From contig CANGIS010000033.1 in NCBI GenBank assembly GCA_947454055.1, forward strand, positions 1 through 32,043: 32,043 bases of DNA, given 5' to 3'. This document shows positions 4,270 through 18,889 of the stretch, piece after piece. The position numbers and the translations under genes are program-made. Each line of letters starts with the position of its first letter. Position 1 is the stretch's first letter. Origin of the DNA: Hyphomicrobiales bacterium (GTDB taxonomy: Bacteria > Pseudomonadota > Alphaproteobacteria > Rhizobiales > Beijerinckiaceae). Below the pieces are notes generated by a model, which saw nothing but the letters and a program-made list of their open reading frames with translations, was not told the DNA's origin and did not search any database.

Positions 4270-4489
4270 GGGTACCAACTCAGGGCAGGGCGCGTTGAAT
4301 ATTGGGGCAGCCGGGGTGACGTTTAGCGGATGGCTCGGTCAACATCGAGTGAAATTCATTAGCCTGAAAATGTCATCGAATACATATTTCAGCGTCGTCT
4401 CTGGTTTCGAACATTGTCGCTGGTTCCAGCTGATCACTCCACATTAGTCCGGTCAAATAGGGACGCACAGCGATAGGCATTGTTGAGCG

Positions 4490-5545: not shown

Positions 5546-5893
5546 ACAAAACTCGTGACTGACTGGAATACAAGGCAGGATATTCAACCCGCTGACGTTG
5601 GCCGAATTAGCTTGAAAAAGAAAAGCTATTCATCGTTCGAAAATTAAGAGCAGCCGTTTCATGTTAAGGTTGGCCGTGTTGAGCGTTGTCGCATTCAGCG
5701 TATTTACGCCGACAATTCTAACCTCAATGGATCAAAGTTGAGGCACAGGTCAATGGACTCGTGGCTTTTCTTTAACATCGACTGGTCATGGATGGCATCA
5801 TTTGAACTAAACGATCCGTCATGACCTTCTTTATGAGGTTTAATCCTTAGGGCCAATAAAGGTTCCATCGAGCAGCGAATTTATTCATCGCCT
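5546..5893. other. Non-coding gap between glycan block and catabolic operon
   Basis: About 350 bp without a convincing gene. It is richer in A and T than its flanks. An inverted repeat, CCTCAA at 5722-5727 and TTGAGG at 5738-5743, could form a 6-bp stem, but no T-run follows on either strand. A 26-codon frame (5661-5741, plus strand) starts MLRLAVLSVVAFSVF and would encode a hydrophobic peptide, but there is no strong ribosome-binding site and I do not call it a gene. The region probably holds the promoter of the leftward glycosyltransferase gene and the end of the seven-gene operon from the right. Confidence 0.5.
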
Positions 5894-6445
5894 TCAGCGG
5901 AGGAACTGATCGACATAGCCCTCGCCAAAGCCCTGAGCGTTGTAATGCTTCCGGCATAGGTCGATTTTGGTGAACACATCCTCGTAGCCTTGAACGGCTC
6001 CATCCGGATCAACGTAAATCATGGCACCGTTGACTTGAAACATCGTGATCATTTCTGGCACATCCGGATCGACCACCAGCGTATGGGTCTCGCCCGGCGC
6101 CTCATAGACATAGGCTCCTTCGGTCGCAACCCAATCATGCTCGAGATAGCGCCAGGAGCCTTTGAGCACAAAGCCATGCACGGGCTGGGGGTGACGGTGG
6201 CGGGACAGGACGCCGGATTTTCTAACCCGCAGCAGATTGACCCAATACCCCCGACTGGCCGAAAGGCACAGGGGACGAAACCATACATTCGTCGCTTGCG
6301 GCACCCATAGGCGCTCGTCCTCGGGGATCGCATGCGGGATGACAATTTCCGGAAACGCATCTTTGGGCTGCGGATGGCGATAGGGAATCCGGGACGTATC
6401 CTCGTCTTCCTTCAACCCTGCTCGATTGGCGGTTACGTCCTTCAT
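5894..6445 (-). CDS. Cupin protein, 2,4'-dihydroxyacetophenone dioxygenase family
   Basis: A 183-residue single-domain cupin. Motif 1 is SGVLSRHRHPQPVHGFVLKGSW with H83 and H85 as likely metal ligands; a histidine (H90) sits near where many cupins have glutamate. Motif 2 is GAYVYEAPGETHTLV with H121. Length and motif pattern resemble the dioxygenase family that cleaves the C-C bond of an aryl alpha-hydroxyketone, and related ChrR-like cupins. Here it is the last gene of a sugar-type operon, 18 bp after an SDR dehydrogenase. An aliphatic alpha-hydroxyketone made from a sugar is a plausible substrate, but that is inference. The start ATG is preceded by AAGGAAGGA. Alternative: a non-enzymatic cupin or an isomerase. 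Confidence 0.75.
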   Translation of the reverse strand: MKDVTANRAGLKEDEDTSRIPYRHPQPKDAFPEIVIPHAIPEDERLWVPQATNVWFRPLCLSASRGYWVNLLRVRKSGVLSRHRHPQPVHGFVLKGSWRYLEHDWVATEGAYVYEAPGETHTLVVDPDVPEMITMFQVNGAMIYVDPDGAVQGYEDVFTKIDLCRKHYNAQGFGEGYVDQFLR

Positions 6446-6463
6446 CGTGTGGTGTCCTTCCTT

Positions 6464-7198
6464 TTACTGGGCTGCATAGCCGCCATCGATCGGAAGGACG
6501 GCACCGGTGATAAATCGGGCTTCCTCCGAACAAAGATGGGCAACGACGCCGCCAATATCAGAGGGCGTTCCCCAGCGTTTCATCGGTGTTCGGTCGATGA
6601 TGGCTTTCGAGCGCGCCTCATCCTCTCGCGCGCCGCGGGTCAATTCCGTTGCAATCCATCCCGGTGCAATCGCATTGACGCGGATACCCTGATCGGCCCA
6701 CGCCACGGCAAGCGATTTGGTGAGTTGGACGATGGCCCCTTTCGATGCCGAATAGGCCGGCGTTAAAGGGCCGCCGAAGATCGACAACATCGACGCGGTA
6801 TTAACAATCGCGCCGTGCCCGGAAGCAGCGAGTTTTGACCGCGCCGCGACGCACATCCGCATCGTTCCCGTCAGATTGACATCGACCACTTTCTTGAAGG
6901 TTTCAATGTCATATTCGGCGCCGCCCCGAAGGATCATACCGGCGCAATTGATCAAGGCGTCGATCGGCCCGCAGGATGCGACCACGGCGGCTACCTCCGC
7001 ATCGCTTGTGACATCGAGCTTGACGGCGTGAAGCCCCTCGCGCTCCGGAACGGCGGCAATTTCGGCGGCCGATAATCCCGTCACGGTGACGTGATATCCG
7101 GCCGTCAGCAACGCTTCAGCAATACCAAAACCGATGCCCCGCGCACCCCCTGTAATGAGGGCTCGCTTGGTGATGCTCGCAGGATCCCTTGCCGGCAT
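6464..7198 (-). CDS. SDR-family NAD(P)-dependent oxidoreductase
   Basis: About 244 residues, a classical short-chain dehydrogenase/reductase. It has the cofactor loop TGGARGIGFGIA, the NCAG motif, a catalytic serine in NTASML and the catalytic pair in YSASK, followed by IRVNAIAPGWIATEL and a C-terminal ITGAVLPIDGGY. Such enzymes oxidise or reduce a secondary alcohol or ketone with NAD(P). I chose the ATG at 7198; a GTG at 7219 would add seven residues, and neither has a strong ribosome-binding site. It lies between the PanB-like gene and the cupin gene with short gaps, so it probably acts in the same catabolic route, for example making the ketone that the cupin enzyme cleaves. Confidence 0.88.
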   Translation of the reverse strand: MPARDPASITKRALITGGARGIGFGIAEALLTAGYHVTVTGLSAAEIAAVPEREGLHAVKLDVTSDAEVAAVVASCGPIDALINCAGMILRGGAEYDIETFKKVVDVNLTGTMRMCVAARSKLAASGHGAIVNTASMLSIFGGPLTPAYSASKGAIVQLTKSLAVAWADQGIRVNAIAPGWIATELTRGAREDEARSKAIIDRTPMKRWGTPSDIGGVVAHLCSEEARFITGAVLPIDGGYAAQ

Positions 7199-7256
7199 GA
7201 CGATGTTTCTCACGGACACAGACGGACCATGGTAGCATCCCGAACGAAAGAAGCCA

Positions 7257-8057
7257 CTAGGCCCCGGCGAGATGCTTCATGAACAGATCGAGCTCTTTGG
7301 GGTTCATGTGAACAATATGCTTGTCTTCCGGATAGGCTTTGCTTGTCACATCCGCCACATATTCCGAAAACGCCGCGACACGTTCGGCCTGCAGGCGATC
7401 GAATTCGGCCGCAAAATTCCGGTACACCTTGGAATGACGCGGCATGTGCCCGCGGTTTTGTCCGAGAATATCGTCGGCAAACAGATATTGCGCATCGCAG
7501 CCCATGCCTGCGCCCATCGACAGCATAAACAGCGAGGTCCGCTCCGAGATTGCCTTGGCGACTTCGACCGGAACCACCTCGATCTCGGCACCGAAAGCTC
7601 CGGCGGCCTCGTATTGTTTCACGGCGTTCCAGATTTCCATCGCGCTTGTTGCCGTTTTTCCGACGGCTTTGAAGCCACCCGTCCATGTCGCGCGGGAGGG
7701 AATAAGTCCGACATGGCCGATGACCGGAATGGCCTCGTCCGCCATCGCCTTGACGGTGGCATAACTGGCGCTGCAATAGACCGCATCTGCTCCCGCTTTA
7801 TAGAGGCGAAACGCCCACCGCACGAAATCATCCGATGTTCCAATTTCGTAGAAATTATCGCCCGGCATCGAAAACAGCGTCGGTGCCGCATCGCGATAGT
7901 TCGGATCCATCATCAGGCTTGGCGGGATCGAGACAATATCGATACCGGCACGCTCGGCCGCTTCCGCCTCGTCCAAATTCATGACCCGGAGCATGGTAAG
8001 CTGGCGCTTGCCCTTCATGGCGCGAAGGTCGGCAATGGTCGGTCGCTTGCGGGACAT
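7257..8057 (-). CDS. PanB-like (ketopantoate hydroxymethyltransferase superfamily) protein lacking metal ligands
   Basis: 266 residues along the whole length of PanB. The region PVIGHVGLIPSRATWTGGFK matches the PanB GHLGLTPQ...GGYK segment. IEVVPVEVAKAI keeps the catalytic glutamate position (E160), MGAGMGCDAQYLFADDILG matches the GAG..DGQ block, and the tail (SEYVADVTSKAYPEDKH) matches as well. By eye against remembered E. coli PanB, the three metal-ligand positions are changed: the Asp of GDSL is P46, the Asp of ADLPF is about G66 (with D67 next to it), and the Glu of KIEGG is S96. It is therefore unlikely to make ketopantoate. It lies 24 bp after a desaturase gene inside a sugar-type operon, not beside panC. 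A lyase or aldolase acting on an operon intermediate is a guess. Confidence 0.75.
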   Translation of the reverse strand: MSRKRPTIADLRAMKGKRQLTMLRVMNLDEAEAAERAGIDIVSIPPSLMMDPNYRDAAPTLFSMPGDNFYEIGTSDDFVRWAFRLYKAGADAVYCSASYATVKAMADEAIPVIGHVGLIPSRATWTGGFKAVGKTATSAMEIWNAVKQYEAAGAFGAEIEVVPVEVAKAISERTSLFMLSMGAGMGCDAQYLFADDILGQNRGHMPRHSKVYRNFAAEFDRLQAERVAAFSEYVADVTSKAYPEDKHIVHMNPKELDLFMKHLAGA

Positions 8058-8081
8058 GATCGAGCTCTTTCTTTTTCGGAT

Positions 8082-9188
8082 CTATTGCCGGCCGTTATTG
8101 GCGGCCATGTTGACGTGGTGAAATTCTTCGCGATATGGACGCGCGGTTGCAGGCAATTCGCGCTTCAAGAAGTAATCCTCGTTGCGCAATTGCCGCAAAA
8201 ACGCGGGTATCATTTCCCGATAGGCATGCCACATCGACGGGTTGGGCTCGGGCAGATCGTGTTTGATCAAGGCGTGCAGGCGCGGCAACGCATGAAACGG
8301 CACCATCGGAAACATGTGGTGTTCGACGTGGTAATTCATGTTCCAATAGATGAACCGGCTGATCGGGTTCATATAGACCGTGCGCGAATTGAGCCGGTGG
8401 TCCGTTACATTGTCGGCCAAGCCGCCATGCTGCAAAATGCCGGTCAGCAGCATATGCCAGCAACCATACATCCGCGGCAGGCCGATCAACATCAAAGGCA
8501 GCCAGGAATGCAGGTAGATCGTCAAAGCGAGGGTCACTGCGTAAATTGCCAGATGGACCTGCGCCGCGCGGACCGCCTTGGGCTGTTCGCTTTCGGGTAT
8601 GTAGCTCTTTTCATCGGGGGTAATCATGCCAAGCGCATTTTTCAAAAGCCCCGCCAGAGAATACCAGACATCGAACAGGCCGATATAGTTCAACACCAAA
8701 CGGATGAGCGCCGGAGGCCGCATGACGGCAATCTCGGCGTCACGACCAACGATGATCGTATCGGTGTGATGGCGCGCGTGGCTCCAGCGCCACGTCACCG
8801 GATTGCGCATCAACATGAAGCTCGCAATCTCGTACACGACATTGTTCATCCACGGCGTTTTGAACGCGGTGCCGTGGCTGCATTCATGCCAGCGCGAGTC
8901 GCTGGCCGAGCCATAGAGAACGCCATAGACAAAGAAGAAGGGAACGCAGGCCCAACTGCCCCAAAAAAATATTCCGCCGGCAGCGGACAGGGCCATGGCG
9001 CCCAGCCAGAGGATGGTATCGCGAATGGCCGGACCATTGGAGCGTTGCATCAGCTCCTTCATGTCCTTGCGCGAGACATCGGAGTGATACCACTCGGCGG
9101 ATGCAAGGCCGATTTCGATGGCCCGCCGCGTGCTTTCGCCAACCAGGCTGTAATCGCGTTTAACGTTAGCTTCAGTCGCCACGGACAC
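8082..9188 (-). CDS. Membrane fatty-acid-desaturase-like di-iron oxygenase
   Basis: 368 residues with all three histidine boxes of the membrane di-iron desaturase/hydroxylase superfamily: HECSH (101-105), HARHH (137-141) and YHVEHH (286-291). An extra histidine in ILQHGGLADN (H254) is also typical. Hydrophobic stretches lie around residues 57-95, 165-185 and 212-240. The start is the GTG at 9188, supported by GGGAGG about 5 nt upstream. Relatives desaturate or hydroxylate acyl chains or other hydrophobic substrates using O2 and an electron carrier; none is encoded nearby. Its place in the middle of a carbohydrate operon is unusual and suggests hydroxylation of a non-lipid substrate or of a glycoside's alkyl group, which is inference. 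Confidence 0.85.
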   Translation of the reverse strand: MSVATEANVKRDYSLVGESTRRAIEIGLASAEWYHSDVSRKDMKELMQRSNGPAIRDTILWLGAMALSAAGGIFFWGSWACVPFFFVYGVLYGSASDSRWHECSHGTAFKTPWMNNVVYEIASFMLMRNPVTWRWSHARHHTDTIIVGRDAEIAVMRPPALIRLVLNYIGLFDVWYSLAGLLKNALGMITPDEKSYIPESEQPKAVRAAQVHLAIYAVTLALTIYLHSWLPLMLIGLPRMYGCWHMLLTGILQHGGLADNVTDHRLNSRTVYMNPISRFIYWNMNYHVEHHMFPMVPFHALPRLHALIKHDLPEPNPSMWHAYREMIPAFLRQLRNEDYFLKRELPATARPYREEFHHVNMAANNGRQ

Positions 9189-9239
9189 GGTGACCTCCCA
9201 TTTGTTTCAAATAACCATCATGATGCCGTTTCGGTCCCG

Positions 9240-10421
9240 TCAAGACGGCTGCCGAAGAGCGGTAAAGTGTCCCGAAGGCTTCGGGAAATCGTCGGCGGGC
9301 TGGCGGGCGATGGCGCTTATCCGCGCTTCGGAGGCGGCGATCGCGCTTGCGCCATCCAGCACCCGGAAGACCGCGTCATAGGACCGATACTCGCCGTGTT
9401 CGAGCCAGATCATTTCGCCACGCTCGCGGGCCGCGAGATTTCCCGTGACGTGATGGGTCGATGGTTCAATTCCCATGGCGTAATGGCCCGCTTGAAAGTC
9501 CTGCCATTGATAGGTGCAGGGCAATTGGCTTTTGCGCGTTGTCACTTCGAAGCCGAGGCCCAACCGATCGTTCATCACGGCGATGGGCACTTCGTCTTTC
9601 GCATTGGCGACCATCTCGTGTTGCCAGACCTGTTCGATAAATTCGGATTGCGGCGCCGGCACCGTGCGGTAGCCGATCTTTTGGGCGCGATAGCGTTCGC
9701 CGTCATGGGCGGCCCACACCACGTCCCTGATCGGCGCGACATAACGCGCACCCTCATCAAGCAAGGGATAGCCGACATTGACATGATAGAAAAACATATG
9801 CGGCGTCCGCCGGAAACCGTGATTGACGACCCGGTCCGATATGCGGATTTCATGCCCGCCGACATCGGCTTCGATCCGCCGGATCAGATGCAGATCTTCT
9901 CCGAACATTGCCGATTGCTGGATGACGCCCTCGGCCCATAAGACGCACTGATCGCCCTTCCATGTCTCGCCATATCCGGTCAGTCGGGCCGGTATCATGC
10001 CGACACGGCCATGCAGCGTATGCCGAACGGTCTGGCGCCCGGGATAGCCATAATTGTCGCCGGGAACGTCTTGCGGCCCGAGAATATGGTCGAGCCCGCA
10101 GGTGACCATGAGCCCTGAAAACGAGCGCGCCCATGCGATGCCGTTTTCGCCTTCCTGATCGTGCAGGGAGGGATGGCGGAAACCCGTTGGCGAATGCCAG
10201 CCGATGGCCTTTCCGTTATATTCGCAATCGGCAATATCGAGTGCATGGTCAATCAGGGCCGTGAAGCGCAGGCCGGAGCCCGTCCTGAATTCGAGCATCC
10301 GGATGCCGCGTTCTACCCCATCCCCCAATTCCATCAGACGAACACCGGCAAACTGCGAGAGCAGGCCGGATCGCTCGGCAACTTGACGGCGTGTCAGGGT
10401 CTGGCCGTAAAGCTCCACCAT
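9240..10421 (-). CDS. DUF4432 aldose-epimerase-like protein
   Basis: 393 residues with the galactose-mutarotase-like beta-sandwich character of DUF4432 proteins. Recognisable segments are GIRMLEFRTGSGLRFTALIDHALDIADCEYNGKAIGWHSP, MVTCGLDHILGP, YGYPGRQ, LHGRVGMIPA and the metal or sugar-binding-like HMFFYHVNVGYPLLDEGARY. Members usually occur with sugar transport and catabolism genes and are thought to epimerise or bind sugars; few are characterised. The start ATG at 10421 has a CAGGAAAG element about 10 nt upstream. It is separated from the upstream isomerase gene by 78 bp that contain a strong GC hairpin, so it may be expressed at a lower level than the first two genes. Confidence 0.75.
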   Translation of the reverse strand: MVELYGQTLTRRQVAERSGLLSQFAGVRLMELGDGVERGIRMLEFRTGSGLRFTALIDHALDIADCEYNGKAIGWHSPTGFRHPSLHDQEGENGIAWARSFSGLMVTCGLDHILGPQDVPGDNYGYPGRQTVRHTLHGRVGMIPARLTGYGETWKGDQCVLWAEGVIQQSAMFGEDLHLIRRIEADVGGHEIRISDRVVNHGFRRTPHMFFYHVNVGYPLLDEGARYVAPIRDVVWAAHDGERYRAQKIGYRTVPAPQSEFIEQVWQHEMVANAKDEVPIAVMNDRLGLGFEVTTRKSQLPCTYQWQDFQAGHYAMGIEPSTHHVTGNLAARERGEMIWLEHGEYRSYDAVFRVLDGASAIAASEARISAIARQPADDFPKPSGHFTALRQPS

Positions 10422-10467
10422 GGAATTGCTGCTTTCCTGAATATGGATCGTCGGAGGGGCTAGGAGT

Positions 10468-10493
10468 GCGGCGCCGCATGAAAGCGGCGCCGC
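10468..10493 (-). terminator. GC-rich hairpin between isomerase and DUF4432 genes
   Basis: GCGGCGCCGC at 10468-10477 and again at 10484-10493 form a 10-bp stem with a 6-nt loop; each arm is also a palindrome by itself. No T-run follows on the minus strand, so it is not a complete intrinsic terminator. It could stabilise the upstream mRNA end or attenuate read-through into the DUF4432 gene. Confidence 0.45.
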
Positions 10494-10499
10494 GCTGTC

Positions 10500-11414
10500 T
10501 CAAAGGCCGTTCGAGCGGAATTTGCCGTCGAGAAATTTCTTGGCCCGAGGCACATCATCTTCCGACAAATGCTCGATGATGACCGGAATGTTGGGGTGCT
10601 TTTCCGAAAGCCGCTGCAGATATAAATCGTAATTCAGCGACCCTAAGCCAGGCGCCGGCAATTCGATTTCGCCAACGCCGCGGAAGGTGTGGCTTTCCAA
10701 AGCATCGGCATCACCAATATCGGCGTGCTTTTCAGCTTTATCATCGCCCGAACGCTTCACGTCTTTGGCGTGGGCGATTTTGATTTTGTCCGTCAGCGTG
10801 TCGAAGACCTGATTCAGAATCTGGTCCATCCGGTCAATGTTGTGAGATTCGAAATAATTGGTCGGATCCATCAACAGGCCAAGGCCGGGATGGTCCACTT
10901 GCGCGAACATCTTGACGGTTTCCTCGACCGAGCCGACGACATTGTTCACATAGGTTTCGAGCAGAAACACGGAGCCGTGATCATAGGCGGTCTGGGCCAG
11001 ATCGGCGATCACCTTCCGGCATTCTTCGAACCCTTCTTCCGTCTTGTTTTTGGGATGATGAACCCAATCGGACTCGGTATTGTAGGTTCCGGTCTCGGAA
11101 ATCACATAAGGGGTGCCGAACAGGCGCGCGTTGCGGATAATCTCTTTCAGATAGCCAACGCGGCGATCGCGTTCGCCTTTATCGGGATGGATAATATTGG
11201 TGTAGGCCGAAATGCAGCTGATCGGTAGATTGTGATCGCGGAACGTGTCACGAACCGTCTTGGCCTTGTCTTTGGTGATCTGGCCGGCGGAGAGATCGAT
11301 GTCTTTGAAATGAAGATCGAGCTGAACGGTATTGAAATCCAGCGCACGAATTTTTTGGGCCGTTTCCTTGAGGCTATACGGGAAATATCCCGTGAAAATG
11401 CCGGACTGCATCAT
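10500..11414 (-). CDS. Sugar phosphate isomerase/epimerase (TIM-barrel, AP-endonuclease-2 family)
   Basis: 304 residues of the xylose-isomerase-like TIM-barrel family. Visible strands and metal-site candidates are FNTVQLDLHF, PISCISAYTNIIHPD, TPYVISETGTYN, FLLETYVNNVVGS (Glu), GLLMDPTNYFES (Asp), KIKIAHAKDVKR (His) and PVIIEHLSEDD (Glu). The spacing matches the usual Glu-Asp-His-Glu metal set. The frame remains open upstream, but the real start is the ATG at 11414, with AAGGGAGGA about 9 nt before it. It follows the Gfo/Idh gene by 26 bp. In many operons these two families work together on oxidised (3-keto) sugars or inositols, so isomerisation, dehydration or epimerisation of a keto intermediate is likely. 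Confidence 0.87.
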   Translation of the reverse strand: MMQSGIFTGYFPYSLKETAQKIRALDFNTVQLDLHFKDIDLSAGQITKDKAKTVRDTFRDHNLPISCISAYTNIIHPDKGERDRRVGYLKEIIRNARLFGTPYVISETGTYNTESDWVHHPKNKTEEGFEECRKVIADLAQTAYDHGSVFLLETYVNNVVGSVEETVKMFAQVDHPGLGLLMDPTNYFESHNIDRMDQILNQVFDTLTDKIKIAHAKDVKRSGDDKAEKHADIGDADALESHTFRGVGEIELPAPGLGSLNYDLYLQRLSEKHPNIPVIIEHLSEDDVPRAKKFLDGKFRSNGL

Positions 11415-11440
11415 GATAAAAATCCTCCCTTTATATTTTT

Positions 11441-12535
11441 TTACGAGATCGAGATTTCGGATAATTTGACGGTGCGCCCCTGTTTGATCGAACGATATCC
11501 TGCTTCGATCAACGCCATTGTCTTCACATTGTCGGCAACCGACAGGGCAGGGGCCTCGCCGGTCTTTACCGCGTATTGCAGCTGCTCCATCACGCCGATA
11601 AAGGCGTGCGGAAACCACATCGTTTCCCAGCTTGGTGTTACCCATTCGCCGCCGGTTGTCTTTGTCGAGGCATAACTCAGCGTTGAGGCAGCGCCGGTAG
11701 GCCAGCCAATGGCCCCTTTTGCGACGCCTGAAACCCCTTCGACCCGCCAATGAATGTGCTGGTCGTCCTTGTAGCCAGCTTCGCGGGGGCCGGACCAAAC
11801 ATCCTCGACCGATACCGCCATGGCGCCCGATGGAAATTTCATCGTCGAGACCGTAATGCCGTCGGAATGGTCAAAGCGCGTGCGCGGATCTTTGCGCGTC
11901 AGCGTTGTGATTTCGTCGGGATCCCCGAACAAGAAACGCAAGACATCAAGATGGTGCACGCTCATATTGGCAAGGGTCAGCCGGTCATAGCCTTCCAGAA
12001 AGCCCTGCCAATGCGGAATGGCGTGCATGTCGATCTGGGCAAAGACAATCTCACCCAGCGCGCCGCTTTCCAGAATCTGTTTCAACACGCGCATCGATTG
12101 GTCGTAGCGCATGTTCTGGTTGACGGAGAGCACCTTGCCCGCCTTGGCCGCCTCGTCCCGCAGCTTGATGGCTTCATCCAGCGATAGAGCCAAGGGTTTT
12201 TGAGCCAGAATGGCCTTGATGTGCGGCTGCTTCAGAGCATGCCGGATCAAAGCGGGCTGCTGGTCCGGTGGATAAGCCATATCAATAATGTCGATGGCCG
12301 GATCTTCGATCAAGGCTTCGGGTGACGCATGGACCTTGGCAATGCCCCAGCGGGTGGCCACCTGCTCGGCCTTCGCTCTTGTGCGGGAAGCGATGGCTGC
12401 GACGGGAAATCCGGCCTCTTTGTAGGCAGCAAGATGACACTCGGCCATAATCATACCGGCGCCGATGCACCCGATCTTAAAGTCCCGGCAGCGGATATCG
12501 ATGTCGGGCTTGAACCCCTTCGCGTTAGGCATCAT
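11441..12535 (-). CDS. Gfo/Idh/MocA-family oxidoreductase
   Basis: About 364 residues. It has an N-terminal Rossmann dinucleotide site IGCIGAGMIM, then IASRTRAKAEQVA, AIDIIDMAYPP and the AQKPLALS segment, where the conserved lysine of the family's EKP motif is kept but glutamate is replaced by glutamine. The C-terminal domain contains NMSVHHLDVLRFLFGDP, with the expected paired histidines. It should oxidise a sugar, sugar derivative or inositol with NAD(P). I chose the ATG at 12535. A GTG at 12559 is possible, but the strong GGGAGG lies only just upstream of two ATG codons (12535 and 12532), so the start could be either. It is the first gene of the leftward seven-gene run and faces the LacI regulator. 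Confidence 0.88.
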   Translation of the reverse strand: MMPNAKGFKPDIDIRCRDFKIGCIGAGMIMAECHLAAYKEAGFPVAAIASRTRAKAEQVATRWGIAKVHASPEALIEDPAIDIIDMAYPPDQQPALIRHALKQPHIKAILAQKPLALSLDEAIKLRDEAAKAGKVLSVNQNMRYDQSMRVLKQILESGALGEIVFAQIDMHAIPHWQGFLEGYDRLTLANMSVHHLDVLRFLFGDPDEITTLTRKDPRTRFDHSDGITVSTMKFPSGAMAVSVEDVWSGPREAGYKDDQHIHWRVEGVSGVAKGAIGWPTGAASTLSYASTKTTGGEWVTPSWETMWFPHAFIGVMEQLQYAVKTGEAPALSVADNVKTMALIEAGYRSIKQGRTVKLSEISIS

Positions 12536-12845
12536 CCCTCCCTTTTCGGCTTTTTTCACGCCGATTTTTGATGGATTAAGTTCCCACTTGATTTAATCCC
12601 TGTCAATTATGATTTGTTCAAATTTCCAAAAATAAATAAAAGTTGATCCGTAAAAATAAAAATTTGAGTATTTTTTACCAAATTTTCGAAAAAAATAATC
12701 CAAAATAATAAATTTTACCTGATTTTGGCCAAAGCGGACGATCTACGTAATGTTGAGCCGATGAGCTGAAACCAATCATTTAACATCATTTTAATTGACA
12801 GGACGGCCGCTTCATGGAATTTCTTGGCGCAAAGGGAGGCTAAGA
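12536..12845. promoter_or_regulatory. AT-rich divergent regulatory region between Gfo/Idh operon and lacI-type gene
   Basis: About 310 bp without a gene; 12600-12720 is extremely AT-rich with many A and T runs. On the minus strand CATAAT (complement of 12606-12611) is a possible -10 box for the Gfo/Idh operon. TTGATTTAAT at 12588-12597 lies where its first transcribed bases would be, and repeats the left part of the palindrome upstream of the binding-protein gene. GGATTAA at 12573-12579 and TTAATCC at 12593-12599 form an inverted repeat. CCTGTCAATTA at 12599-12609 is perfectly inverted at 12792-12802. TTTTCGAAAA at 12683-12692 is a palindrome with a central CG, as in many LacI operators. These are candidate operators only. 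Confidence 0.55.
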
Positions 12846-13889
12846 ATGAGCAAACATTCGGCCATACGCAGTCGAGCAACGATTCTCGATATTGCCGCGG
12901 CAGCCAATGTCTCGACGGCTACGGTCGACAGGGTTCTGAACGGTAGGGGTGGCGTGAAGGGCCGCACGCTGCATCGGGTCATGGAGGCGGCTGAGCGTCT
13001 CGGTTACATCGATGCGGTTGAAGCGCCGCCACATTATTCGGCTCCGCTGTCGCTCGACTTTATCTTGCCCGGCGGCACCAACACCTTCATCAACAATCTC
13101 GCCGAACGCATTGCCGAGATCGCGGCCAAGCGCGAGCACGAGGCGACCATTCGGGTTCACCGGATCGAGGGTTTTGTCGCCGAAGCCTTGGCCGATTGTC
13201 TGGCCTCGCTCAGAGGTAAAAGCGACGGAATCGCCATCATTGCCATTGATCATCCGCTTGTTCGGGAGGCCGTCCGCGAATTGTCGAACGATCAATTGCC
13301 GGTGCTCACACTGGTGTCGGATATCTCGAATGTGCCCAGAATTGGCTATATCGGCATTGATAACCGCGCAGCTGGCAGGCTGGCAGGTCATTTAATGAGC
13401 CGTTTCGTCGGGCAGGGCGCCGGAAAAATTGCATTGTTCGCAGGATCACTCTCCTACCGAGGGCACGAGGAAAGGGAGATGGGGTTTCGCAATATTCTCG
13501 CCGAGGAGTTTTCCAATCTGACGATTGTGCAGATGCTGGAGGTGCGCGACGACACCGAACGCTCCTATCGGGAAGCGTGCCGGCTGTTCGCGGAGGTTCC
13601 CGATATTCGTGGAATTTATAACATTGGAGGAGGCAATCGCGGCATTGCCCGCGCCCTCGAAGAGACCGGCCACGCCAAGGCTGTCGTTTTCATCGGACAT
13701 GAACTGACCGAGCACACGCGGCGCTTTCTGCTCTCCGGCATTATGGATGCGGTCATCGATCAAAATCCCCGTGTGGAAGCGCGCGAGGCAATCGATCAAT
13801 TGATTCGGGCTGCGCGTGGCGAATCCGTGTCTTCCACGCTGCCGATTAGGACTCACGCCATCTTCAGAGAGAATATTCCCGAACAATAG
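12846..13889 (+). CDS. LacI-family transcriptional regulator
   Basis: 347 residues. It has an N-terminal helix-turn-helix and hinge typical of LacI: TILDIAAAANVSTATVDRVLNGRGGV, then GRTLHRVMEAAERLGYI. It is followed by a periplasmic-binding-protein-like effector domain with LSLDFILPGGTNTFINNLAERI, IGIDNRAAGRLAGHLM, IALFAGSLSYRGHEERE and DIRGIYNIGGGNRGIARAL. The start is the ATG at 12846, with AAGGGAGG 7 nt upstream; the frame extends further upstream without a better start. It probably represses both the divergent catabolic operon and the downstream importer, with the imported sugar or an early intermediate as inducer. The effector domain resembles ribose-type binding proteins, matching the transporter next to it. 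Confidence 0.9.
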   Translation: MSKHSAIRSRATILDIAAAANVSTATVDRVLNGRGGVKGRTLHRVMEAAERLGYIDAVEAPPHYSAPLSLDFILPGGTNTFINNLAERIAEIAAKREHEATIRVHRIEGFVAEALADCLASLRGKSDGIAIIAIDHPLVREAVRELSNDQLPVLTLVSDISNVPRIGYIGIDNRAAGRLAGHLMSRFVGQGAGKIALFAGSLSYRGHEEREMGFRNILAEEFSNLTIVQMLEVRDDTERSYREACRLFAEVPDIRGIYNIGGGNRGIARALEETGHAKAVVFIGHELTEHTRRFLLSGIMDAVIDQNPRVEAREAIDQLIRAARGESVSSTLPIRTHAIFRENIPEQ

Positions 13890-13967
13890 GGGAGACTGAA
13901 GGATCGTGGGACGTCTGTTTAAGCAAGGGTCAGCTTCGCTTTGATGTGAATTTTGATGGAAAAAAAA

Positions 13968-13999
13968 TGTTATAATTAAAATGAGTTGATTTAAATCAA
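13968..13999 (+). promoter_or_regulatory. Extended -10 promoter plus palindromic operator upstream of binding-protein gene
   Basis: TGTTATAAT at 13968-13976 is an extended -10 element (TGn plus a perfect TATAAT). No good -35 is visible, which is usual for this promoter type. Starting 10 bp after it, TTGATTTAAATCAA at 13986-13999 is a perfect 14-bp palindrome placed at or just after the expected transcription start, a classical repressor position. The LacI-type gene immediately upstream is the obvious candidate to bind it. The binding-protein mRNA would have a leader of about 130 nt. Confidence 0.6.
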
Positions 14000-14115
14000 A
14001 GGTTGCCAAGGGCATGATTAACAGATTAGCTTATTCAAAATAAAGATTTTCGTGCTGTTTAGCCGCGCAGCATGAAGCAGATTATTGAAAGCGGTTCTGG
14101 ACGGGAGAGAAACTA

Positions 14116-15246
14116 ATGATAAAGTCAAAATTCTTGCTGCCGTTGACGGCGGGCGCTGCCCTCCTCTTCGCGACGGCAGCTTTTGCAGGCCCGAAGATCG
14201 TTTCGGGCCCAGGTGCAGATCCAGCTTGCTTCAAGCCATGGACGCCTGAGACCAAATATTTCCAGTGGGAAAAAAAGCCAGGTCCTTACCGGATCGCTAT
14301 CGTCAACGGCTTCGTTGGCAATACCTGGCGCATTCAGATGATCAAGACCGCGAAGGCATTTGCTGAGCAGGCTGGCATCAAGGGTGACATCAAGGAATTG
14401 AAGGTTATCTCGACCGGTACCGACGTTGCAGCTCAGCTCGGCGCCATGGAAGACTTTATCAACCAGGGTTATGACGCGATTGTTACGATCGCTGTTTCGC
14501 CTGAAGGTTTCGACCGGGTGATCAAGCTTGCCGACAAGAACAACGTCGTCGTCGTTCCTTTCGACAACGTTCTTGATACCGACAAGGTCATGATGGTCAA
14601 CGAAGATCAGAAGCAGCTCGGCGCCATGCCAGGCGAGTTCCTGATCAAGGAAATCGGCAAAAAAGAAGGCAAGATCCTCGAAGTGCGTGGCTTGCCAGGC
14701 AACTCGGTTGATCGTGATCGTCACATCGGCTTCCGCAATGTGATGGAAGCGGCTGGCAACAAGTTCCAGATCGTTGAAGTTGTCGGCAACTGGGATGACG
14801 GCACCGCGCAGAAGGTTACGGCCGATGCGATCGCTGTTCATGGCAAGTTCGACGGCATCTATGTTCAGGGCGGCACCACCGGTGTTGTTCGCGCTATGAT
14901 GGACGCCAAACACCCCTTCGTTCCAGTCGCAGGCGAGTCTGAAAACGGCTTCCGCAAGCTGGTTGCCGAGCATGCCAAGGACGGTCTGAAGGGTCTGTCC
15001 ATTGGTCAGTCGCCTGGCCTGGTTGCGATTTCCATGAAGGCCGCTATCTCGGCTCTGAAGGGCAATCCAATGCCACAGCTCATCTCGATCCCGATCCCAG
15101 GTGGCGATTACACCACCTTCAAGGACGGCGTGAACTATTGGTCGAACCTGACCGATAACTTCTTCACGACGAACGAGTTTGCTCCTTGCGGCGTGAATAT
15201 CTCAGCTACCGAGATCATGGCCAAGGACGAAAAGAACTCGAACTAA
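14116..15246 (+). CDS. Sugar ABC transporter, periplasmic substrate-binding protein (RbsB-like)
   Basis: 376 residues. It has a signal peptide (MIKSKFLLPLTAGAALLFA, predicted cleavage after TAAFA) followed by a mature Peripla_BP_4-type domain: YRIAIVNGFVGNTWRIQMI, QGYDAIVTIAVSPEGFDRV, VVVVPFDNVLDTDKVMMV, LEVRGLPGNSVDRDRHIGF and FDGIYVQGGTTGVV. The N-terminal ADPACFKPWTPE segment precedes the fold and contains a cysteine. It binds the imported sugar in the periplasm. GGGAG lies 7 nt before the ATG. Codon use differs from neighbours (for example frequent CCA for proline and GTT/GCT endings), resembling the ribosomal protein genes in this window, as expected for a highly expressed binding protein. 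A terminator follows directly, favouring excess binding protein over the membrane parts. Confidence 0.92.
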   Translation: MIKSKFLLPLTAGAALLFATAAFAGPKIVSGPGADPACFKPWTPETKYFQWEKKPGPYRIAIVNGFVGNTWRIQMIKTAKAFAEQAGIKGDIKELKVISTGTDVAAQLGAMEDFINQGYDAIVTIAVSPEGFDRVIKLADKNNVVVVPFDNVLDTDKVMMVNEDQKQLGAMPGEFLIKEIGKKEGKILEVRGLPGNSVDRDRHIGFRNVMEAAGNKFQIVEVVGNWDDGTAQKVTADAIAVHGKFDGIYVQGGTTGVVRAMMDAKHPFVPVAGESENGFRKLVAEHAKDGLKGLSIGQSPGLVAISMKAAISALKGNPMPQLISIPIPGGDYTTFKDGVNYWSNLTDNFFTTNEFAPCGVNISATEIMAKDEKNSN

Positions 15247-15261
15247 TCGAGCCAAACAAGG

Positions 15262-15299
15262 AACCCGGGCAAGTGCTTTCGAGCGGCCCGGGTTTTTTT
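15262..15299 (+). terminator. Intrinsic terminator after binding-protein gene
   Basis: AACCCGGGC (15262-15270) pairs with GCCCGGGTT (15286-15294) across a 15-nt loop, followed by a T-run to 15299. It lies between the binding protein and ATPase genes, so partial read-through would set a high ratio of binding protein to transporter. Confidence 0.85.
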
Positions 15300-15328
15300 G
15301 TCCGCAATTCAAAACAGGCAGATGTGTT

Positions 15329-16876
15329 ATGACGCACCCCGCAGATGATGCTTTTCTATCTCTCACCGGGATTTCGAAGCGCTATGGCGGCGTTCATGCC
15401 CTCAACAATGTTGATTTTCATTGTGGTCGCGGCAAGGTCCATGCCGTTCTTGGCGAGAACGGTGCCGGCAAGTCGACCCTTATCAAGATCATTTCGGGCG
15501 TTGTACGCCCCGATCAGGGCACCATGATGCTCGATGGTCAGATGGTCAATTTCCAATCCCCATCGGCCGCCAATGCGGCGGGGATTGTGTGTATTTTCCA
15601 AGAATTGTCGTTGATGCCGGATCTTACGGTTTCCGATAATATTTCGATCGCATCGCCACCCCGCAAATTCGGCCTCATCGACGCCAAGGCGCAGCGGATG
15701 CGGGCTGAAGAGTTGCTCGCTTCGATCGGCTGCGAAGATGTCAATCCGCTGATGCGGGTGCGTGATCTGCCTCTTTCACGTCGGCAGATGGTCGAGATTG
15801 CGAAAGCTCTGGGCAAGAGCCCCAAAATTCTCATTCTGGATGAAGCGACATCGGCTCTCACCAGTTCCGACGTTGAAAAAGTCTATGCGATGCTCGCCCG
15901 TTTGAAGGCGGAAGGCGTTGCCATTCTTTATATCTCGCATCGTATGCACGAAATCGAGGCGCTGGCAGATAATGCGTCGGTCTTCCGCAATGGCCGTCAC
16001 ATCGAAACATTTGCCAAGGGCACGCGTAACAACGACGAAATCGTGCAATTGATGATCGGCCGCGAAATTTCGGCCCACTTCCCGCCAAAGCCTGCGTTGA
16101 AGCGGCCGAAGCCTTTGCTCGAAATCGAGAATCTGTCGTGGGAAAACCGCCTCGACCATGTTTCGCTCTCGGTTGGCCGCGGTGAAATTGTTGGTCTTGG
16201 TGGTCTCGACGGCCAGGGTCAAAAAGAGTTGCTGCTTTCCCTGTTTGGCGTCCTCAAGCGCGTTGAAGGCGACGTGAAACTTGATGGCGTGAAGCAAAAT
16301 CTGACATCGCCCCGGGTTGCCAAAAGCGCCGGCGGCGGTATTGCGCTTGTTCCCGAAGATCGCAAGACCGAGGGGCTGATGCTGCCGATGTCGATCGCCG
16401 AAAATCTGGTGCTTGCATCGCTGGATGAATTAAGCGCCGGATCTCTGGTCGACGAGACGAAAGTTTCAGCCGCCGTGGCCGATGCCATTGAGCGGTTGAA
16501 GATCAAGATCGGCAGCCCCGAGGATGCGGTCTCCACGCTTTCCGGCGGCAACCAACAAAAGGTGGTCATTGCCAAATGGCTGATGACCAAGCCCGATGTT
16601 ATTTTGTTGAACGATCCTACCCGCGGCATCGATGTCGGCACCAAGCAGGAAATCTATCGCCTGCTGCGCGAGCTGGCGGATGAGGGAGCTGCAATCCTGT
16701 TCTACTCGACTGACTATGACGAGTTGATCGGTTCATGCGATCGCGTTGCCATCATGTATGACGGCCGGATCATTTCCGAGCTGGAAGGCGACGCCATCAA
16801 CGAAAAGTACATTGTTTCTGCTTCGCTCAATATTGCCGGACAAAAATCGAATGGAGGCGCGCATGTCGGCCACTAA
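15329..16876 (+). CDS. Sugar ABC transporter, duplicated ATP-binding protein (RbsA-like)
   Basis: 515 residues with two ABC domains. The first has Walker A GENGAGKST (42-50), a divergent signature LSRRQMVEIAKAL and Walker B ILILDEATSAL. The second has a degenerate Walker A (GLDGQGQKE), the signature LSGGNQQKVVIAKWL and Walker B-like VILLNDPTRGIDVG. This asymmetry is normal for RbsA, XylG and related proteins. It powers import of the bound sugar from the inner face of the membrane. It lies downstream of the binding protein terminator and overlaps the first permease gene by 14 nt. Confidence 0.95.
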   Translation: MTHPADDAFLSLTGISKRYGGVHALNNVDFHCGRGKVHAVLGENGAGKSTLIKIISGVVRPDQGTMMLDGQMVNFQSPSAANAAGIVCIFQELSLMPDLTVSDNISIASPPRKFGLIDAKAQRMRAEELLASIGCEDVNPLMRVRDLPLSRRQMVEIAKALGKSPKILILDEATSALTSSDVEKVYAMLARLKAEGVAILYISHRMHEIEALADNASVFRNGRHIETFAKGTRNNDEIVQLMIGREISAHFPPKPALKRPKPLLEIENLSWENRLDHVSLSVGRGEIVGLGGLDGQGQKELLLSLFGVLKRVEGDVKLDGVKQNLTSPRVAKSAGGGIALVPEDRKTEGLMLPMSIAENLVLASLDELSAGSLVDETKVSAAVADAIERLKIKIGSPEDAVSTLSGGNQQKVVIAKWLMTKPDVILLNDPTRGIDVGTKQEIYRLLRELADEGAAILFYSTDYDELIGSCDRVAIMYDGRIISELEGDAINEKYIVSASLNIAGQKSNGGAHVGH

Positions 16877-17918
16877 ATCATCCGACCTCGGTTTACGCCT
16901 TCGTCAGAATATGGGCTTCGCGATCGCGGTTGTGCTCTTCGCTGTCGTCTATTTCTTGTATCAATTGTCCCACCCGAAGGGATTTTCATCGCAGGTTTTT
17001 GTCCAGAACTCGAACGAGGTTTTCTCGCTCGCAATGCTGGCGATGGCCCAGACGGTTCCTGTGTTGATGGGCGGTCTCGATCTTTCGGTTGGTGCCGTGA
17101 TGACGTTGGTTGACTGTCTGGCCAGCCACGTTCTGGAAGGGTCCGGCTGGAGCATTTTCGGCGGCATTGTCTTGTGTCTTTTGACAGGCGCCGCTGCGGG
17201 TCTGGTTAATGGCTGTGTGGTTGTTTTCGGTCGCATCCAGCCCATCATCGCAACGCTCGCAACCGGCGCGATCTATATGGGCCTTGCCCTGTTCCTGCGA
17301 CCCATTCCGGGTGGCAAGATCAACGAGGATATCAATTGGGCGATGACCAATTCGCTCGCTGATTTCGCCGAAACAGTTGGTATTTTTGACGACGGAAAAG
17401 CCCCTTGGTTCCAAACCATTGCGGGCTTTCCGACCTCCCTTGTTTTTCTGATTGTCGTTGCCAGCGTGATCTGGATTCCTTTCCGTCGCTCGGTCACGGG
17501 TCGGACGGTCTATGCGATCGGATCTGCGGAGGGTGCAGCCTTCATGTCGGGTCTCAATATTGAGCGTGGCAAGCTGGCGGCCTTTACGTTGGCGGGCATC
17601 TTCGCTGGCATTGGTGGCATCTTTATGGCGATCCAGACATCGTCCGGCAATGCCGACATTCCGATGGCAGGCGCTTATACGTTGAGCTCCATCGCGTCCG
17701 TCGTTATCGGAGGCACGTCGCTTCTGGGTGGAACGGGTGGGGCGATCGGATCGATCTTCGGAACGCTCATTTTGAAAGTGATCTCTTTCAATTTCAGAAT
17801 CTTCGACATCGCGCCGCTGCTTCAGCCTCTCTTCGAGGGCCTTGTCCTGCTGGGTGCTGTCAGCCTTGGCGCTCTGAGCATCCTGCGTGTGAAAAACCAA
17901 CTGGAGTTATTCCGTTGA
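16863..17918 (+). CDS. Sugar ABC transporter permease (RbsC-like), first
   Basis: 351 residues from the ATG at 16863, which has GGAGG 5 nt upstream inside the end of the ATPase gene. Many hydrophobic helices are present: FAIAVVLFAVVYFLYQL, a VPVLMGGLDLSVGAVMTLVD region, and GGIVLCLLTGAAAGLVNG. The conserved permease segment AGIFAGIGGIFMAIQTSSG is followed by YTLSSIASVVIGGTSLLGG near the C-terminus. It belongs to the BPD_transp_2 family and pairs with the next gene as a heterodimeric channel. RbsC often acts as a homodimer, so two different permeases point to a branch of the sugar importer family that uses a pair. Confidence 0.93.
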   Translation: MSATKSSDLGLRLRQNMGFAIAVVLFAVVYFLYQLSHPKGFSSQVFVQNSNEVFSLAMLAMAQTVPVLMGGLDLSVGAVMTLVDCLASHVLEGSGWSIFGGIVLCLLTGAAAGLVNGCVVVFGRIQPIIATLATGAIYMGLALFLRPIPGGKINEDINWAMTNSLADFAETVGIFDDGKAPWFQTIAGFPTSLVFLIVVASVIWIPFRRSVTGRTVYAIGSAEGAAFMSGLNIERGKLAAFTLAGIFAGIGGIFMAIQTSSGNADIPMAGAYTLSSIASVVIGGTSLLGGTGGAIGSIFGTLILKVISFNFRIFDIAPLLQPLFEGLVLLGAVSLGALSILRVKNQLELFR

Positions 17919-18889
17919 CCGATATGACACGATTTTCGCCCCTTTCCCGTCTCTCGCGCGATGATAAGCCCATCGCAATTGCGGCGATGTTCATCCTGGT
18001 CATTCTGATCGCCGGCACCTGTTATACGCTGGTGCGGTTCGGCAATGCGCCCTTGCTGACGCCGGCCTATTTGATCCAGCAACTCCAGATCGGGTCATTT
18101 TTGGGGATCATCGCGGCTGGCATGATGCTGGTCATCCTGATCTCGCAGATTGATCTGTCCGTGCCTTGGACGCTGGCCGCCGGAGCCATGACGGCAACCG
18201 CTGTCGGTGGTGAATGGGCCTTGCCAGCGGCCTTGGGTGTGGGCCTGTTCGTGGGCCTGCTGAATGGCTTTGGTGTGGCCTATCTGCGCATTCCGTCGAT
18301 GATCTTCACGCTCGGGGTCAATGCCGTGATGCGCGGGTTGATGGTGGCGCAAACCGGCGGCTTTGCTCCGCAAACGGCTGCGACCGATTTGATGCGCTAC
18401 ATAGCAGCCGAACGGACGTTTGGTGTTCCCCACGCGATCTTTGTCTGGTTGGCGATTTCCATCGGCATGGTGATCTTGCTGCGCAAAACAACGTTCGGAC
18501 GGGCCATCTATGCCATCGGCAATAAAGAAGCGGCAGCCTATCTATCGGGTGTTGCGACGCGCCGGGTGACAATCCTCGCTTTCGTGATGTGCAGCGTGGC
18601 GGCAAGCCTCTCAGGCGTTCTCCTCGCGGGCTATGCCACCAAGGCCTATCAGGGCATGGGCGATGCCTATGTGTTGCCGGCCATTGCGGCGGTTGTCATT
18701 GGCGGAACCAATATTCTGGGCGGCCGCGGCCGCTACCTGGGCACTGTTGTCGGCGTGATCCTGATCGTTCTGCTTAACAGCGTTTTATCGATCATGGAAA
18801 TGCCGGAGGCGGGTCGCCAGATTATCTATGGTTTGGTCATTATTTCCATGCTTCTCGTTTATGGACGGGGCGAAAAAGTAGCCTCGTAA
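17915..18889 (+). CDS. Sugar ABC transporter permease (RbsC-like), second
   Basis: 324 residues. The TTG at 17915 overlaps the stop of the first permease (TTGA) and has TGGAG about 9 nt upstream; an ATG lies three codons later at 17924. It has the same family layout as its neighbour: AAGMMLVILISQIDLSVPWTLAAGAM, VGLLNGFGVAYLRIPSMIFTLGVNAVMRGL, FGRAIYAIGNKEAAAYLSGV and VLPAIAAVVIGGTNILGGRG. It is an integral inner-membrane protein that forms the translocation path with the first permease. A strong terminator follows. Confidence 0.92.
   Translation: MTDMTRFSPLSRLSRDDKPIAIAAMFILVILIAGTCYTLVRFGNAPLLTPAYLIQQLQIGSFLGIIAAGMMLVILISQIDLSVPWTLAAGAMTATAVGGEWALPAALGVGLFVGLLNGFGVAYLRIPSMIFTLGVNAVMRGLMVAQTGGFAPQTAATDLMRYIAAERTFGVPHAIFVWLAISIGMVILLRKTTFGRAIYAIGNKEAAAYLSGVATRRVTILAFVMCSVAASLSGVLLAGYATKAYQGMGDAYVLPAIAAVVIGGTNILGGRGRYLGTVVGVILIVLLNSVLSIMEMPEAGRQIIYGLVIISMLLVYGRGEKVAS

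What the first reader, a model, noticed from the sequence alone, without database searches (positions are those of the whole stretch)
5894..18889. LacI-controlled sugar-type locus whose catabolic operon includes two apparent oxygenases
Seen: a leftward run of seven genes with gaps of 18-78 bp, opposite a LacI regulator and a complete RbsABC-like importer. Known: Gfo/Idh and TIM-barrel isomerase pairs process keto-sugars or inositols. Unusual: the same run contains a membrane di-iron desaturase/hydroxylase, a dihydroxyacetophenone-dioxygenase-like cupin and a PanB-like protein. I know of no described sugar pathway with this set. Inference: the imported compound is an unusual polyol or a methylated, alkylated or deoxy sugar, needing O2-dependent steps; the SDR makes an alpha-hydroxyketone that the cupin cleaves, and the PanB-like protein does a C-C bond step.
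Basis: partly seen in the sequence, partly recalled or inferred. Interest (0 to 1): 0.75.

Follow-up and report, generated by a model that had tools for sequence, protein, structure and literature searches.

The report
Methylated-sugar breakdown operon with PanB look-alike
A bacterium carries a sugar-import and breakdown locus whose oxygen-using enzyme belongs to a family that probably strips methyl groups from sugar-like compounds, and an often-neighbouring vitamin-pathway look-alike may catch the formaldehyde released.

Summary
In detail: seven leftward genes with 18-78 bp gaps face a LacI gene and an Rbs-type importer. The 'desaturase' is a MocD-type di-iron oxygenase (70-76% identical to rhizobial homologues), the oxygenase type of rhizopine (3-O-methyl-scyllo-inosamine) catabolism, so a related pathway is known. 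One MocE ferredoxin and one MocF reductase lie on another contig around an inositol dehydrogenase. Rhizobium alvei and Rhizobium sp. RU36D carry Gfo/Idh-TIM-DUF4432-MocD-MocE-MocF-PanB-like in one run. Best reading: O-demethylation of an imported methylated sugar or polyol. The PanB-like protein co-occurs with MocD (16 of 18 PanB-like genomes have MocD, though 11 of 27 MocD genomes lack PanB-like), has lost PanB's metal and lysine positions, and persists in a genus without detected PanC; it is unlikely to be a pantothenate enzyme. Its place beside such oxygenases, at times with formyl-THF deformylase, suggests that it moves the released C1 unit onto folate (inference). The SDR-cupin pair is portable and not found with the conserved core; the cupin is of the dihydroxyacetophenone-dioxygenase family. 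An operator-like TTTTGATGGA occurs exactly twice in the window, in the two gaps beside LacI. New variant of a known kind.

The parts
5894..6445 (-). DAD-family cupin (Cupin_7)
   Evidence: PDB 4p9g (2,4'-dihydroxyacetophenone dioxygenase) E 6.7e-39
6464..7219 (-). SDR dehydrogenase, paired with the cupin
   Evidence: 52-76% to SDRs near cupin relatives in L038, L091, L092, L093, L094
7257..8057 (-). PanB-like protein without PanB's metal positions; proposed C1-handling partner of MocD
8082..9188 (-). MocD-type membrane di-iron oxygenase, proposed O-demethylase; three His boxes HECSH, HARHH, HVEHH
9240..10421 (-). DUF4432 aldose-1-epimerase-like protein
   Evidence: PDB 3ty1 (hypothetical aldose 1-epimerase) E 7.4e-29
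10500..11414 (-). xylose-isomerase-like TIM barrel (sugar isomerase/epimerase family)
   Evidence: 79-91% in the 8 other loci with a strong TIM hit
11441..12559 (-). Gfo/Idh/MocA dehydrogenase (likely start 12532)
12566..12575 (+). operator-like TTTTGATGGA in the Gfo/LacI gap
12795..13889 (+). LacI-family regulator (likely start 12846)
   Evidence: 51-57% to LacI of Gfo-TIM-DUF4432 loci L083, L084, L085, L088
13951..13960 (+). operator-like TTTTGATGGA in the LacI/SBP gap
14116..15246 (+). sugar-binding protein
   Evidence: 72-75% to an Azospirillum thermophilum SBP
15329..16876 (+). RbsA-type ATPase
   Evidence: similarity only
16863..17918 (+). RbsC-type permease 1 (ORF listed from 16746)
   Evidence: similarity only
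17915..18889 (+). RbsC-type permease 2
   Evidence: similarity only

Best explanation
A LacI-controlled uptake and catabolic locus for an O-methylated sugar or sugar-like polyol. The Rbs-type importer brings it in. MocD, fed electrons by the MocE ferredoxin and MocF reductase encoded on another contig (C11), hydroxylates the O-methyl group, so the ether collapses to an alcohol plus formaldehyde. The PanB-like protein takes this C1 unit, most likely onto tetrahydrofolate. The Gfo/Idh dehydrogenase, TIM-barrel isomerase/epimerase and DUF4432 mutarotase-like protein process the sugar skeleton, and the SDR and DAD-type cupin finish a downstream ketone or acid. Shown by sequence: gene content, family membership, conservation of the core, single MocE and MocF genes elsewhere, loss of PanB residues, a shared operator-like motif. 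Inferred: demethylation chemistry, folate as acceptor, order of steps, substrate.
For: MocD family: 286 plasmid records match, 256 with best place at 60-80% identity; MocE-family ferredoxin, FAD oxidoreductase and PanB-like genes follow it in L001, L002, L004 and L010. R. indicum L004 joins MocD-E-F-PanB-like-PurU to a PLP-dependent aminotransferase-family protein (MocR-like, my reading), SBP, Gfo/Idh and IolE, the make-up of a rhizopine locus. Own genome: one MocD, one MocE (TIGR02377 169.6 bits against cut-off 136.15), one strong MocF (54%; next match E 1.5e-16). Core order Gfo-TIM-DUF4432-MocD in L023, L024, L032 and L056; MocE in 4 of 4, MocF in 3 of 4 (not L032), PanB-like in 3 of 4 (not L056). 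Window MocD lies in an 8-row clade with all six DUF4432-linked MocDs of the tree, support 96/93. In 347 family genomes 27 have MocD, 18 PanB-like, 16 both, p 1.3e-18; without the own genus 16, 7 and 6 of 335, p 2.9e-8 (relatedness not corrected). TTTTGATGGA twice in the window against 0.18 expected, 0 of 100 shuffles with two (pattern chosen after reading the gaps).
Against: No substrate or biochemical evidence. The O-demethylase role of MocDEF is recalled from the rhizopine literature, not shown here. 11 of the 27 MocD genomes have no PanB-like match, G119 (L056) among them, and L006, L008 and L009 of the 10 plasmid loci lack it, so MocD does not need PanB-like. L009 has DUF4432-MocD with no MocE, MocF or PanB-like in its 25 kb. 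Gfo-TIM-DUF4432 occurs without MocD at the locus in L083, L084, L085, L088, so the skeleton pathway does not need demethylation; P. qamdonense T808 has MocD on another plasmid. No close relative of the importer's SBP was found in the stretches of L023, L024, L032 or L056. No operator-like site in the gap upstream of the C11 MocE. Of 26 PanB-like places found by PanB-like queries, 7 have no MocD/E/F within 7 kb, five of them cut by contig ends. The own genome has a glutathione-type formaldehyde dehydrogenase over cut-off, so PanB-like need not be the only sink.
Confidence: 0.6

Rival explanations
1. MocD hydroxylates or desaturates a carbon of the sugar skeleton rather than demethylating; the PanB-like protein is a retro-aldol C-C lyase acting on the product.
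For: PF02548 is in an aldolase-type superfamily (recalled); the E. coli Glu181 and His136 positions are kept in 30 of 30 PanB-like rows; PF00487 enzymes can desaturate or hydroxylate (recalled).
Against: PanB is a metal-requiring class II aldolase (PMC4814558, passage); the positions recalled as its metal ligands are lost: E. coli Asp84 in 30 of 30 rows, Glu114 in 30, Asp45 in 27, and Lys112 in 30. PanB-like relatives sit beside oxygenases of two families (PF00487 and PF04116) and before formyl-THF deformylase in L004, L024 and L057, which fits C1 release better.
Confidence: 0.2
2. The locus handles an O-methyl inositol (pinitol or ononitol type), a direct relative of rhizopine catabolism.
For: MocE and MocF of this genome flank an IolG over its curated cut-off (TIGR04380 435.1 bits against 355); an IolD-like gene is in the genome (46%); other MocD loci sit beside iol genes.
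Against: The window Gfo/Idh scores 97.6 against the IolG cut-off of 355; DUF4432 resembles a hypothetical aldose epimerase and has no hit in the iol-linked stretches L006 and L007 or L053; no iol gene recognised in the seven-gene run.
Confidence: 0.25
3. A patchwork of modules with no single substrate: the LacI-Gfo-TIM-DUF4432 unit, MocD-PanB-like, SDR-cupin and the importer serve different compounds.
For: Each unit occurs apart from the others: core without MocD at the locus, SDR and cupin with tricarboxylate-transporter or other genes, importer relatives with no desaturase annotated nearby (gene tables incomplete).
Against: Tight 18-78 bp gaps in one run; the same operator-like 10-mer in both gaps beside LacI and nowhere else in the window.
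Confidence: 0.2

Closest known systems
Rhizopine (moc) catabolism, mocDEF with mocABC and mocR (PMC10107442, passages)
   Same: MocD-type oxygenase with MocE ferredoxin and MocF reductase in the genome, a Gfo/Idh enzyme, a TIM-barrel protein, an SBP; PanB-like and PurU follow MocDEF in R. indicum L004
   Different: LacI instead of a MocR-like regulator at the locus; DUF4432, SDR and cupin added; MocE and MocF unlinked
FixV-type LacI genes divergent from mocD operons (PMC3538637, passages)
   Same: LacI beside MocD and a TIM barrel; TTTTGATRGAWW occurs in LacI gaps of such loci and in both window gaps (sequence)
   Different: Window LacI is nearer the LacI of Gfo-TIM-DUF4432 loci (51-57%); Gfo-TIM-DUF4432 core and Rbs-type importer
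P450 demethylation of 6-O-methyl-D-galactose in marine Flavobacteriia (PMC10033563, passages)
   Same: Ferredoxin-fed oxidative O-demethylation of a sugar giving formaldehyde, as proposed here
   Different: Haem P450, not a membrane di-iron enzyme; no PanB-like partner in the passages read
Gfo-TIM-DUF4432-SDR loci of Sinorhizobium and others (L083, L084, L085, L088)
   Same: Same three-gene core and LacI type
   Different: No MocD at the locus; SDR follows, then CoA transferase and enoyl-CoA hydratase in three of the four (lactonase in L085)

Membership tests
MocD-type oxygenase module | MocD homologue with three histidine boxes | tested here: met
   boxes in 44 of 44 MocD rows, window included
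MocD-type oxygenase module | MocE ferredoxin and MocF reductase | tested here: met
   in the genome, not at the locus:
Rhizopine moc system | MocR-type PLP/GntR regulator at the locus | tested here: not met
   LacI instead
Rhizopine moc system | rhizopine-type SBP (MocB) | tested here: inconclusive
   NF052284 is not among the 10 NCBIfam matches of the window SBP, but the SBP of L004 also misses its cut-off (39.8 against 420)
Rhizopine moc system | MocA-type Gfo/Idh | tested here: inconclusive
   TIGR04380 97.6 bits against cut-off 355, but two Gfo/Idh of L004 also miss it (182.1 and 100.5)
Rhizopine moc system | growth on 3-O-methyl-scyllo-inosamine | not testable with these tools
   needs growth tests
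PanB (ketopantoate hydroxymethyltransferase) | Pfam PF02548 | tested here: met
   141.2 bits against cut-off 28.7, but only profile positions 91-258 aligned
PanB (ketopantoate hydroxymethyltransferase) | curated equivalog score TIGR00222 | tested here: not met
   98.7 against 207.55
PanB (ketopantoate hydroxymethyltransferase) | metal-ligand and lysine positions (roles recalled: Asp45, Asp84, Glu114, Lys112) | tested here: not met
   kept in 7 of 7 canonical rows; in 30 PanB-like rows Asp45 kept in 3, Asp84, Glu114 and Lys112 in 0
PanB (ketopantoate hydroxymethyltransferase) | partner PanC in the genome | tested here: not met
   PF02569 in 0 of 12 genus genomes; the control rang in 9 of 14 named genomes
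2,4'-dihydroxyacetophenone dioxygenase-family cupin | sequence similarity, HxH plus later His (metal role recalled) | tested here: met
   alignment to 4p9g; shows family, not substrate

The most novel reading that the evidence does not exclude
The PanB-like family is a tetrahydrofolate-dependent formaldehyde-capturing enzyme: a PanB that lost its metal and keto-acid half and transfers the formaldehyde (or the hemiacetal CH2OH) made by membrane di-iron O-demethylases onto THF, so that methyl-ether sugar catabolism feeds one-carbon metabolism without free formaldehyde. One paper (PMC7073904, passages) calculates the spontaneous reaction to be too slow to serve assimilation, names Fae for tetrahydromethanopterin, and could not rule out an uncharacterised enzyme for THF.
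Probability: 0.3. Interest if true: 0.82.

Novelty: new variant of a known kind. Interest (0 to 1): 0.56.

Why it matters
It extends MocD-type O2-dependent chemistry from rhizopines to a wider set of sugar-like compounds in rhizobia and other Alphaproteobacteria. It gives a reason to question the annotation 'ketopantoate hydroxymethyltransferase' on a family linked to oxygenases. It also offers a concrete, cheap test of whether bacteria have an enzyme that loads formaldehyde onto tetrahydrofolate.

Tried and rejected
PanB-like as the organism's PanB: rejected (PF02569 in 0 of 12 genus genomes; lost residues). C-C lyase: disfavoured. AlphaFold2 of the PanB-like protein from six sequences was poor (mean pLDDT 45.0); no fold search was made with it. 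A MocE/MocF operator shared with the window: not found. The 9-mer TTTTGATGG is absent from L083, L084, L085, L087, L088, L023, L024 and L056, so the motif is not general to that core; it is in the Gfo/LacI gap of L032. Holding the six DUF4432-linked MocDs alone as one clade is rejected (p-AU 0.00025); L034 and L005 nest among them. PurU in the own genome: only a 29% partial match. The L029 flavoprotein beside a PanB-like gene could be a demethylase, but its best PDB relatives are NCR and dienoyl-CoA reductase, before trimethylamine dehydrogenase: undecided. The first MocD tree mislabelled short copies of the window and L032 loci; labels were corrected.

Literature: eight searches. No title or abstract start listed there names a PanB-like partner of a demethylase; listings were capped and the library holds open-access PMC papers only. 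Papers opened, by passages only: PMC10107442, PMC3538637, PMC5132102, PMC10033563, PMC7073904, PMC4814558.
Full report
Seven leftward ORFs (cupin, SDR, PanB-like, desaturase-family, DUF4432, TIM barrel, Gfo/Idh) lie between 5894 and 12559 with gaps of 18, 37, 24, 51, 78 and 26 bp, opposite a LacI gene, an SBP, an ATPase and two permeases. Pfam places the nine proteins scanned over curated cut-offs; the ATPase and permeases were judged by similarity to annotated genes.

The oxygenase is MocD-type. tblastn against plasmids gave 286 records, 256 with best place at 60-80% identity; by first word of the name 147 are Rhizobium and 85 Sinorhizobium. [quoted passage not shown] L005 and L007 lack the FAD gene. 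PanB-like is found in 7 of the 10 and not in L006, L008 or L009. In R. indicum L004 MocD-E-F-PanB-like-PurU lies beside a PLP-dependent aminotransferase-family protein (MocR-like, my reading), SBP, Gfo/Idh and IolE, the make-up of a rhizopine locus. That mocDEF takes part in rhizopine catabolism, and that LacI genes divergent from mocD are known, I read in passages of PMC10107442 and PMC3538637. That its job is O-demethylation of 3-O-methyl-scyllo-inosamine is my recollection of Bahar et al. 1998, whose title I saw in a reference list. All 44 MocD rows examined show three histidine boxes.

The electron chain is split. The genome holds one MocD, one MocE and one strong MocF (54%; the next match is E 1.5e-16). 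MocE and MocF lie on contig C11 around a Gfo/Idh; MocE passes TIGR02377 and the Gfo/Idh passes the IolG model. In same-genus G005 a partial copy, 93% identical, of that IolG follows MocD-MocE, so C11 looks like an O-methyl-inositol-type locus lacking its own MocD (inference).

The core is conserved, the rest less so. Gfo-TIM-DUF4432-MocD recurs in Rhizobium alvei L023, Rhizobium sp. RU36D L024, same-genus G011 L032 and same-family G119 L056 (in the last with importer-like genes inserted before DUF4432). MocE is there in 4 of 4, MocF in 3 of 4 (not L032, a short contig), PanB-like in 3 of 4 (not L056; G119 has no match either). Gemmobacter L009 has DUF4432-MocD alone. The MocD tree (42 rows, two long branches dropped) puts the window in an 8-row clade with all six DUF4432-linked rows, support 96/93, apart from the other same-genus MocDs except that of L032; the six alone are not a clade. 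The Gfo-TIM-DUF4432 core with the closest LacI relatives (51-57%) stands without MocD at the locus in L083, L084, L085 and L088, followed by an SDR and, in three of the four, CoA transferase and enoyl-CoA hydratase. SDR and cupin travel as a pair: in G008 with close relatives of the window's importer (88-90%) and an amidohydrolase-like ORF (named by eye); in L091-L094 with other genes, tricarboxylate-transporter genes in three of the four. The SBP is 72-75% identical to an Azospirillum protein with no desaturase annotated in the 19 kb shown (gene table incomplete).

Regulation. TTTTGATGGA occurs exactly twice in 32,043 bases, at 12566-12575 and 13951-13960, in the two gaps beside LacI; 0.18 expected, 0 of 100 shuffles with two. 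The pattern was chosen after reading these gaps, so the number overstates surprise. TTTTGATRGAWW has 10 matches in 9 of 106 loci, 9 of them in LacI-MocD or LacI-TIM gaps and one inside a LacI gene. This pattern too was chosen after reading gaps of some of these loci; L007, L008, L031 and L062 had not been read before, but L031 is a near copy of L001. The nearby motif is not in the gap upstream of C11 MocE, and TTTTGATGG is absent from L083-L085, L087, L088, L023, L024 and L056.

The PanB-like protein. It scores under half the PanB equivalog cut-off (98.7 against 207.55). In 30 relatives against 7 canonical PanBs, E. coli Asp84, Glu114 and Lys112 are each lost in 30 of 30 and Asp45 kept in 3 of 30, while His136 and Glu181 are kept in 30 of 30; a Tyr-Cys pair (Tyr94-Cys95 in the window protein) stands at the Lys112-Ile113 positions in 30 of 30. 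The roles of the E. coli residues are recalled; that PanB requires a metal I read in a passage of PMC4814558. None of 12 genus genomes has a PanC match, yet 11 of 12 have PanB-like. In 347 family genomes 27 have MocD (E 1e-100 or better), 18 PanB-like (40% identity or more, two of them fragments) and 16 both; outside the own genus 16, 7 and 6 of 335. The two PanB-like genomes without such a MocD, G007 and G025, hold MocD fragments at contig ends. Against a fixed partnership, 11 of 27 MocD genomes have no PanB-like. Relatedness is not corrected for.

Neighbourhood of PanB-like. Of 26 places of 40% identity or more found by PanB-like queries and fetched (window not counted, a G078 fragment not fetched), 19 have MocD, MocE or MocF within 7 kb. 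Of the 7 others five are cut by contig ends, and L029 and L059 are true exceptions. Two weaker relatives were fetched apart: L078 (33%) has a MocE-like ferredoxin beside it, L077 (36%) has no Moc gene. In L076 (44%) and L078 the neighbours include a membrane hydroxylase of another family, PF04116, and a MocE-like ferredoxin. PurU follows PanB-like in L004, L024 and L057, and follows MocF in L006, which has no PanB-like in the stretch. The pattern suits a protein that handles the C1 product of oxidative demethylation. Against necessity: the own genome has a glutathione-type formaldehyde dehydrogenase over cut-off, as has G009 (2 of 12 genomes); 9 of the other 10 have PanB-like.

Cupin. Its best solved relative is 2,4'-dihydroxyacetophenone dioxygenase 4p9g (E 6.7e-39), with the HxH and the later His aligned. 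The family is right; an aromatic substrate seems unlikely in this neighbourhood (inference).

Verdict. Parts of a known kind in a new arrangement: a MocD-type, probably demethylating, sugar operon. The open and interesting point is the PanB-like family, for which a folate-linked formaldehyde-capture role is the boldest reading the data allow (probability 0.3). PMC7073904 (passages) reports that spontaneous formaldehyde-THF condensation is too slow to be an effective assimilation route, and that deleting panB with ltaE in E. coli did not change the growth that it supports.

Noticed in passing
L053:11375-14004 (own genome C11): MocF-IolG-MocE run with no MocD, LacI or transporter hit beside it; looks like a locus that lost its oxygenase.
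   Followed up: partly
L076:8372-11514 and L078:5668-8782: Distant PanB-like proteins (44% and 33%) near a PF04116 membrane hydroxylase and a MocE-like ferredoxin: a second oxygenase family with the same partner.
   Followed up: partly
L029:447-4948: PanB-like gene beside an OYE/trimethylamine-dehydrogenase-like flavoprotein and a Creatinase_N protein, possibly another demethylation context.
   Followed up: partly
L043:7377-13317: Two PanB-like copies on either side of a PurU remnant of which only the two ends match, in same-genus G006.
   Followed up: no
L083, L084, L086, L087, L088: DUF4432, SDR, CoA transferase and enoyl-CoA hydratase genes together in five loci (beside GH78 and GH88 in Croceibacterium L086), perhaps an undescribed sugar-to-CoA route.
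   Followed up: no
genus of the window genome (12 genomes): No PanC match in any of 12 genomes and, in the own genome, no PF02548 protein but the PanB-like one: probable pantothenate auxotrophy.
   Followed up: partly
window 2581-5587 and 19600-21021: Glycosyltransferase-like ORFs to the left and a cytochrome bd subunit I-like ORF to the right, judged by eye only.
   Followed up: no
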